Translations under genes and position numbers: made by a program | Shown: piece after piece, positions 20,576-28,053 of the stretch | Layout: each line of letters opens with the position of its first letter | Position numbering within the stretch: position 1 is the first letter of the stretch | Assembly: GCF_012027425.1 (NCBI RefSeq) | Contig: NZ_SNUE01000006.1 | Coordinates: 62,001 to 126,000, forward strand | DNA length: 64,000 nucleotides | Reading direction: 5' to 3' | Source: Thermococcus sp. MV5 | Lineage (GTDB): Archaea; Methanobacteriota_B; Thermococci; Thermococcales; Thermococcaceae | Notes under the pieces: model-generated | Told to the model about the DNA's origin: nothing | What the model saw: the letters and a program-made list of their open reading frames with translations, nothing else | The model's database searches: none

Positions 20576-20627
20576 TTATATATCTTTCGGCATGATATTC
20601 ACCCAAATATATAACTGCTAGTTATAT
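20576..20627 (-). promoter_or_regulatory. metK promoter and upstream dyad
   Basis: The TATA box TATATAAA lies at 20576-20585 (minus strand). Further upstream is the dyad ATATAAC-TGCTA-GTTATAT (20609-20627), 7-bp arms around a 5-base centre. It lies between metK and the divergent H/ACA RNA gene, so it could serve either. Binding of a regulator is inference. Confidence 0.4.
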
Positions 20628-20671
20628 CAAAGACAAAAAGTTAAAATTCCAAGCAATAAAAATTAAATACG

Positions 20672-20828
20672 CATCCGACCCACCCGGTAGCCCGACCGAA
20701 GGAGCCCTAGGGTAGCTATGAATTCTGGGGACGATGCCGGGTGGACAGGGCTTGGTCTCCGGGATCACCCGAGATGGCCGAAAATGGCCCACAATGAAGG
20801 TGAGAGGATATACCAAGCCCACAACCGA
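20672..20828 (+). ncRNA. two-hairpin H/ACA guide RNA
   Basis: A GC-rich island in AT-rich DNA with two H/ACA units in tandem. Unit I has base stem CCACCCGG (20680-20687) pairing perfectly with CCGGGTGG (20737-20744), followed at once by ACA (20745-20747). Unit II has base stem GGGCTTGGT (20748-20756) with ACCAAGCCC (20812-20820), then ACA (20821-20823). Unit II also has an upper stem TCACC/GGTGA (20765-20769 and 20799-20803). Its pocket strands are 20757-20764 and 20804-20811, and GA/TGA elements of an L7Ae K-turn lie at 20771-20772 and 20795-20797. Such RNAs guide pseudouridylation of rRNA with Cbf5, Nop10, Gar1 and L7Ae. Ends are approximate. Confidence 0.85.
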
Positions 20829-20870
20829 AGGTTTTTATCCCATTACGTCAAAAACTTTTTGGTGGTGCTA

Positions 20871-21491
20871 ATGAACATTTCTGAGGTAATAAGAGAAATA
20901 CGGGAGGTTCTGGATAGAAAAGATGAAGTGCGAGAGAAAACGCTAAAACTCACCAGAGAGATTGTTCGCCTAAGTGGGGATTCCATAAAAGCACTTCATA
21001 GAGGAGAATTTAAAATTGCTGAGGAGAGATTGAAAAGAGTGGAAAAACTAGTTAATGAACTAAGAGAGATGCTTAAGGAACATAGAGATCTTTATTTTAC
21101 CGGATATGTGCAAAATGCTCATCAGGAATATGTAGAAGCAACTCTCCTCTATAACTATCTCTTAGGAAAAAATTTTCCCACACCCAAAGAGATTAAAGTT
21201 CCAGAGGCTGATTATGCTCTAGGGATTGGAGATTTTATAGGAGAGCTAAGGAGATATTTTCTTACATTATTGTTGAAAGGAGATTTAGAAAGAGCTCAAG
21301 AAGTCTATGATTTTATGGAAAAAATCTACAACGAGCTTGTTACACTAGAATACCCAAAAGGTCTAGTGAATATAAGACAAAAACAAGATCAGGCCCGATA
21401 TATCCTTGAGAAGACTCTTGAAGACTTAGCCCGAGCCAAGATAAACAAGGCTCTCGAGAAGAAACTCGAGGAGTGGAGAAATGAATCTTGA
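20871..21491 (+). CDS. translin family protein
   Basis: A 206-residue all-helical protein of the archaeal translin family (homologs of eukaryotic translin/TRAX, which bind and cut single-stranded RNA). Family marks are the N-terminal [20 protein letters not shown] (about residues 23-42), the central YTGY-like [19 protein letters not shown] (about 77-95) and [15 protein letters not shown] (about 112-126). The ATG at 20871 follows GGTGGTG at 20861-20867. The last 11 bases overlap the endonuclease V gene, so expression is coupled. Confidence 0.85.
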
Positions 21492-27764: not shown

Positions 27765-27844
27765 CAATCATCACACACAAGGAGGTAGTTTCAAGAAAAA
27801 AAGAGTAAAGAATTTAACCTCTTATGATTATCTTTTAATGCCGA

Positions 27845-28002
27845 CAGCGAGGGTACATAGTTGTACCCTCGTTGGGCCTGGTATACCCGCCTCCACAAGG
27901 TATCGGGCTCTGTGAGTGGGGGTGCTCACACTAGGCCCACAGGGCCGGTGCATCCACCCGCGCGAAAAATGAACGCGGGGCTCTGTTGCCGGCCCACAAT
28001 TC
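27845..28002 (+). ncRNA. two-hairpin H/ACA guide RNA with 5' hairpin
   Basis: A GC-rich island. A strong hairpin CGAGGGTAC/GTACCCTCG (27848-27856, 27863-27871) comes first. Unit I has base stem GGGCCT (27874-27879) with AGGCCC (27933-27938), then ACA (27939-27941). Unit II has base stem GGGCCGG (27942-27948) with CCGGCCC (27989-27995), then ACA (27996-27998). Unit II also has an upper stem CCCGCG/CGCGGG (27957-27962, 27974-27979) capped by a loop with GA and TGA, fitting an L7Ae K-loop. The 3' pocket of each unit starts about 15-16 bases before its ACA, the canonical distance. It guides pseudouridine formation, probably in rRNA. Ends are approximate. Confidence 0.87.
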
Positions 28003-28053
28003 TCCAAAAAATTCTTATACCCGCTCTTCTAAAGCACTTTAGAGAGGGATACC

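What the first reader, a model, noticed from the sequence alone, without database searches (positions are those of the whole stretch)
20672..20828. Two-unit H/ACA RNA between metK and translin
Two perfectly paired base stems (8 and 9 bp) each end directly in ACA, in a GC-rich patch within AT-rich DNA. The second unit also has a K-turn-like element and an upper stem at the right height. This is far more structure than chance allows.
Basis: partly seen in the sequence, partly recalled or inferred. Interest (0 to 1): 0.55.

Follow-up and report, generated by a model that had tools for sequence, protein, structure and literature searches.

The report
Known two-unit archaeal pseudouridine guide RNA
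The stretch encodes HgcE/Pab105, an already described small RNA of Thermococcales archaea that guides the chemical change of chosen uridines in ribosomal RNA; the gene itself is ordinary, and the only fresh point is that some relatives seem to have let it decay.

Summary
Two 9-bp stems, each ending directly in ACA, stand head to tail at 20680-20823. Rfam names the RNA: HgcE (Pab105, RF00060), 98 bits against a cut-off of 50. The Rfam model begins inside unit I and pairs only unit II. In the expected register the pockets match LSU U2558 (unit I) and SSU U15 (unit II) best. U2558 corresponds to P. abyssi 23S 2554, the published Pab105.1 target; SSU U15 to the published position S27. It is a known RNA read in one more genome. 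Extra: 72 of 94 Thermococcaceae genomes have HgcE over the cut-off; in three genomes of the window's own genus the same metK-translin gap holds only a decayed remnant. In the one of these whose rRNA was read, the targets are unchanged. No transcript or pseudouridine was measured here.

The parts
20680..20747 (+). Unit I (orthologue of Pab105.1): lower stem 20680-20688/20736-20744, box ACA 20745-20747
20689..20693 (+). Unit I 5' guide (AGCCC)
   Evidence: 4 pairs on the 3' side of LSU U2558
20694..20729 (+). Unit I upper (GA) stem 20694-20703/20720-20729 with K-turn GA 20702-20703 / UGA 20719-20721 and apical loop
   Evidence: the lowest pairs are often non-standard
20730..20735 (+). Unit I 3' guide (GACGAU)
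   Evidence: 6 pairs on the 5' side of LSU U2558; guide pattern found in 67 of 72 orthologues
20748..20823 (+). Unit II (orthologue of Pab105.2): lower stem 20748-20756/20812-20820, box ACA 20821-20823
20757..20762 (+). Unit II 5' guide (CUCCGG)
   Evidence: found in 71 of 72 orthologues; 6 pairs on the 3' side of SSU U15
20763..20805 (+). Unit II upper (GA) stem 20763-20772/20796-20805, K-turn GA 20771-20772 / UGA 20795-20797 (both invariant in 71 rows), top hairpin 20776-20779/20786-20789
20806..20811 (+). Unit II 3' guide (GGAUAU)
   Evidence: 4 pairs on the 5' side of SSU U15
20710..20840 (+). Rfam RF00060 HgcE match; it begins inside unit I and its consensus structure pairs unit II only
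20635..20648 (+). Possible HgcE promoter (AAAAAGTTAAAATT, BRE/TATA-like), which would place the 5' end near 20669-20672
   Evidence: inference by eye; similar in most aligned genus genomes with an intact copy, altered in the three with a remnant; no promoter scan was run

Best explanation
The locus is the HgcE (Pab105) gene of a Thermococcaceae archaeon: one small RNA of two H/ACA units. Each unit binds L7Ae at its K-turn and Cbf5-Nop10-Gar1 along the stem and ACA box, and its internal loop holds an rRNA segment so that Cbf5 turns one U into pseudouridine. Shown here: family match, structure and covariation of both units, pocket matches to the own rRNA, coincidence with published positions, cbf5 and nop10 genes in the genome. 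Inferred: transcription, RNP assembly, the modification itself. Unit I most likely guides LSU U2558 (P. abyssi 2554); unit II SSU U15 (P. abyssi S27), perhaps also LSU U1385.
For: Rfam HgcE 98 bits, cut-off 50. Two-unit covariation over 71 rows: 25 of 34 pairs with changes on both sides (shuffled mean 14.8, 0 of 500 reach it); 247 double-change cells (93.4, 0 of 500); 87.4% of cells paired against at most 48.0% when the partner is slid by 1 to 3 columns; 13 of the 16 unit I pairs show double changes. ACA ends unit I in 71 of 72 orthologues (ATA in 1); the unit II box reads ACA in 57, ATA in 13, AAA in 1 and TCA in 1. In the 10/6/9 register the best target of unit I in both rRNAs is LSU U2558 (6+4 pairs; 2 of 500 shuffles as good), of unit II SSU U15 (4+6 pairs; 3 of 500). 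In G004 one offset (26, of 12 tried) puts 7 of 7 published 23S positions on U, and one (-12, of 10 tried) 4 of 4 published 16S positions; U2558 then equals L2554, SSU U15 equals S27 and SSU U977 equals S995. L2554 for Pab105.1 and S995 as false target of Pab105.2 are in PMC4652768 (passages). Cbf5 (451.4 bits) and Nop10 (92.5 bits) are encoded.
Against: No transcript or pseudouridine data. The minimum-energy fold of unit I alone uses another apical pairing than the K-turn fold. The three lowest pairs of the unit I upper stem are non-standard in 34, 53 and 27 of 69 rows with letters; in the window they are G-G, A-G and C-G, with a C-U mismatch above. One covariation measure, further pair types, is not outstanding (53 of 500 shuffles reach it), and the shuffles do not keep the relatedness of the sequences. 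When six pocket registers with stem opening were allowed, the unit I target was not better than chance (41 of 200 shuffles as good; unit II 0 of 200). Five of 72 orthologues, among them G012 and G093, depart from the unit I 3' guide pattern. The target sequences are the same in all 12 genomes read, but these include G002, which has no HgcE, so that identity says little about guidance.
Confidence: 0.96

Rival explanations
1. Only unit II is a working guide; unit I is a structural leader or a remnant, as the Rfam model, which leaves it unpaired, might suggest.
For: The RF00060 consensus has no pairs in the unit I half; weak foot of the unit I upper stem; departures from the unit I guide in 5 of 72 copies.
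Against: Lower and upper stem of unit I covary (6 of 9 and 7 of 7 pairs with double changes); guide pattern kept in 67 of 72; its best target in the expected register is the published Pab105.1 target.
Confidence: 0.03
2. The element is a leader or cis-regulatory K-turn structure of the translin gene (L7Ae-bound) and not a guide.
For: Translin starts just downstream here and in 52 of 72 orthologues in all.
Against: In 9 genomes of genus g3 translin lies more than 1 kb away on the other strand, and in 11 more no translin was found in the stretch fetched; translin keeps the upstream box GAAGGTTTTTAT where the RNA has decayed; guide pockets and boxes are conserved.
Confidence: 0.01

Closest known systems
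HgcE / Pab105 (Rfam RF00060), Pyrococcus and Thermococcus
   Same: Sequence and structure match, two H/ACA units in tandem, guide sequences kept, unit I target position L2554; unit II also recovers the tested false site S995 and points to position S27
   Different: Smaller apical part of unit I than in genus g3 copies; the foot of the unit I upper stem has non-standard pairs instead of the bulged A described for P. abyssi (PMC4652768)
HgcG / Pab40 (RF00064) and HgcF / Pab35 (RF00058)
   Same: Thermococcal H/ACA RNAs of several units; they cross-match weakly with HgcE models
   Different: HgcG scores 13.5 bits against a cut-off of 77 at this place; HgcF is a separate gene at 27840-28009

Membership tests
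HgcE / Pab105 (RF00060) | Covariance model score over the curated cut-off | tested here: met
   98 bits against 50
HgcE / Pab105 (RF00060) | Two H/ACA motifs, Pab105.1 and Pab105.2 | tested here: met
   two motifs per PMC4652768
HgcE / Pab105 (RF00060) | Unit I pocket matches 23S position 2554 (P. abyssi numbering) | tested here: met
   in the 10/6/9 register; not significant when six registers are allowed; published target
Archaeal H/ACA guide RNA | Lower stem of about 7-9 bp ending in an ANA box | tested here: met
   9 bp in each unit, ACA directly after; rule from PMC4652768
Archaeal H/ACA guide RNA | K-turn or K-loop in the upper stem | tested here: met
   UGA facing GA in both units; UGA invariant in 71 rows
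Archaeal H/ACA guide RNA | 14-15 nt between ANA box and upper stem, and a GA stem of 10 layers | tested here: inconclusive
   both units can be laid out as 10/6/9, but the foot of the unit I stem has non-standard pairs in many rows and the free fold of unit I differs
Archaeal H/ACA guide RNA | Transcribed and bound by L7Ae, Cbf5, Nop10, Gar1 | not testable with these tools
   only cbf5 and nop10 genes shown; L7Ae and Gar1 genes not searched
Archaeal H/ACA guide RNA | Target uridine is pseudouridylated | not testable with these tools
   needs CMCT or similar mapping

The most novel reading that the evidence does not exclude
HgcE is dispensable and has been lost or has decayed more than once inside Thermococcaceae. 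In three genomes of the window's genus (G079, G083, G084) the metK-translin gap still holds a decayed remnant, while the rRNA targets are unchanged in G079, the one of the three whose rRNA was read; G060 and G067 of another genus carry damaged copies, and 9 near-complete genomes in all lack a copy over the cut-off. These would be natural tests of what the guided pseudouridines do.
Probability: 0.65. Interest if true: 0.3.

Novelty: already known. Interest (0 to 1): 0.14.

Why it matters
As a gene it only adds one more member to a characterised family. Two small uses: the two-unit alignment shows that the Rfam HgcE model is cut in the middle of unit I and could be extended; and the decayed copies in close relatives offer natural guide-loss strains in which the need for pseudouridine at 23S L2554 and perhaps 16S S27 (P. 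abyssi numbers) can be tested at high temperature.

Tried and rejected
A new family was rejected by Rfam. A GAAGGTTTTTAT terminator for HgcE was considered; because the box is kept where HgcE has decayed it more likely serves translin. Ten weaker matches of the two-unit model were fetched: 8 are HgcF and 1 HgcG, all over their cut-offs; the tenth, G067, is a damaged HgcE. Three weak RF00060 matches (L075-L077) are HgcG. Outside the family: of 115 genomes of the class, the 79 with a match are all of the window's family; none of those from other families matched, 16 without a match being unlisted by the tool; the search used Infernal's stricter filters and some of the 79 matches are HgcF. The changed unit I guide of G012 was scanned against its own rRNA without a clear answer. 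The unit I 5' guide count (63 of 72) used a window too short for long-looped copies and is not relied on. An exact 22-base pattern from unit II found nothing in genome contigs, where records near the window's own may be left out. Genus g2 (three genomes) has no RF00060 match at all; its one two-unit match is HgcF. In G001, of that genus, no rRNA was found either, so its absence may be one of assembly.

Dropped rows: one identical row (L018, same as L017); three loci (L075-L077), shown afterwards to be HgcG. G077 dropped out of the alignment because its anchor was not found. Mononucleotide, not dinucleotide, shuffles were used for the remnant test.

Full report
What is there. Read on the + strand, unit I runs from 20680 to 20747 and unit II from 20748 to 20823, head to tail with no spacer. 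Each is a hairpin with a 9-bp lower stem whose 3' end runs straight into ACA. These two are the only places on either strand of the window with a perfect 8-bp stem, a 40-60 nt loop and an adjoining ACA, and no tandem arose in 200 window shuffles (one strand) or 20,000 local shuffles.

Name. cmscan at the curated cut-off gives HgcE (RF00060, Pab105) at 20710-20840 with 98 bits against 50. PMC4652768 (abstract and outline; introduction; first of four parts of the results; sections 11 and 14; passages; tables and supplement not seen) lists Pab105 = HgcE as one gene with two motifs, gives L2554 as a target of Pab105.1 that needs a refolded model, and S995 as a false target of Pab105.2. Its source, Muller et al. 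2008, is not held.

Conservation. 72 of 94 genomes of the family have HgcE over the cut-off (recount). All 72 copies were extracted and 71 distinct ones aligned over both units. Named structure, 34 pairs: 87.4% of cells paired, 25 pairs with double changes, 247 double-change cells; 0 of 500 shuffles reach any of these three, and sliding the partner by 1 to 3 columns drops pairing to 48.0% or less. The number of further pair types is not outstanding (53 of 500), and the shuffles do not keep relatedness. In unit I, 6 of 9 lower and 7 of 7 upper pairs have double changes. So unit I, left unpaired by Rfam, is held by structure too. The weak point is the foot of its upper stem, where the three lowest pairs are often non-standard; PMC4652768 describes a bulged A there in P. 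abyssi and a base pair in Thermococcus.

Targets. With the 10/6/9 layout of PMC4652768 (10-layer GA stem, 6-nt 3' guide, 9-bp lower stem), unit I matches LSU U2558 best of all uridines in the own 23S and 16S (6+4 pairs; 2 of 500 shuffles as good) and unit II matches SSU U15 best (4+6 pairs; 3 of 500), then LSU U1385 (4+5) and SSU U977 (4+5). With several registers allowed, unit I's target is not significant (41 of 200), so its assignment leans on the published site. Numbering was checked in G004: one offset of 12 tried puts 7 of 7 published 23S positions, and one of 10 tried 4 of 4 published 16S positions, on U; U2558 is then 2554, SSU U15 is S27, SSU U977 is S995 and LSU U1385 is 1377. PMC6138745 (passages) pairs T. 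kodakarensis and P. abyssi numbers with a shift of 4 for three sites, which fits; its fourth pair, 2690 with 2685, has a shift of 5 and falls on a C in my numbering of G024, one base from the U. That S27 is guided by Pab105.2, and that 1377 is a known site, I did not see in print. The target sequences are the same in all 12 genomes read, but this includes G002, which lacks HgcE, so it is weak evidence.

Machinery. The genome encodes Cbf5 (451.4 bits) and Nop10 (92.5 bits). PMC4247193 (passages) reports 7 H/ACA RNAs among the small RNAs verified in T. kodakarensis; HgcE is not named in the passages I saw.

Setting. A metK match lies beside the RNA in 62 of 72 orthologues; it was not found in 9 of genus g3, nor in one whose contig begins too near to tell. 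Translin starts just downstream in 52 of 72.

Loss. 22 of 94 genomes have no HgcE over the cut-off; 9 of them are at least 90% complete with at most 5% contamination (G001, G002, G015, G035, G047, G056, G060, G070, G079; counted). In G079, G083 and G084, of the window's own genus, the metK-translin gap is assembled and alignable. There Rfam finds no HgcE and the two-unit model finds nothing in G079 and only 13.9 and 11.8 bits in G083 and G084. The remnant still aligns to intact copies: G083 and G084 against the window score 15.5 and 17.5, with the best of 300 mononucleotide shuffles at -16.5 and -12; G079 scores -8 against -11, but against G078 it does not beat every shuffle (-16 against -15). 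In G082, of the same genus, translin was not found, so nothing can be said. In G015 and G035 the stretch before translin holds no HgcE match. G060 and G067 hold damaged copies (44.6 and 60.5 bits against 88.3 or more for the 72 others). The rRNA targets in G079 are unchanged; rRNA of G083 and G084 was not read. Library searches for HgcE, Pab105 or T. sibiricus with guide RNA showed no report of such loss in their listings; they cover open papers only and the listings were capped.

Verdict. The RNA is the known HgcE/Pab105, so the novelty is low; the remnant copies are the only lead worth passing on.

Noticed in passing
window 27840-28009 (+): A second H/ACA RNA in the window, HgcF (Pab35, RF00058), 139.9 bits against a cut-off of 70.
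   Followed up: no
L113, L114, L115 (G083, G079, G084), metK-translin gap: HgcE is reduced to a decayed remnant in three genomes of the window's genus while metK and translin flank it as usual.
   Followed up: partly
L120/L123 (G060) and L142 (G067): Damaged HgcE copies in genus g4, scoring well below intact ones.
   Followed up: partly
window 20611-20625: Palindrome ATAACTGCTAGTTAT between metK and HgcE, largely kept in the aligned genus genomes, also where HgcE has decayed; it may be an operator of metK.
   Followed up: no
L011 (G012) and L048 (G093): Unit I has a changed 3' guide, so its target may have shifted; a scan of G012 rRNA gave no clear target.
   Followed up: partly
window 20871-21488 (+): The translin-family protein is called 'haloacid dehalogenase superfamily protein' by NCBIfam, while Pfam says Translin: a likely misnomer.
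   Followed up: no
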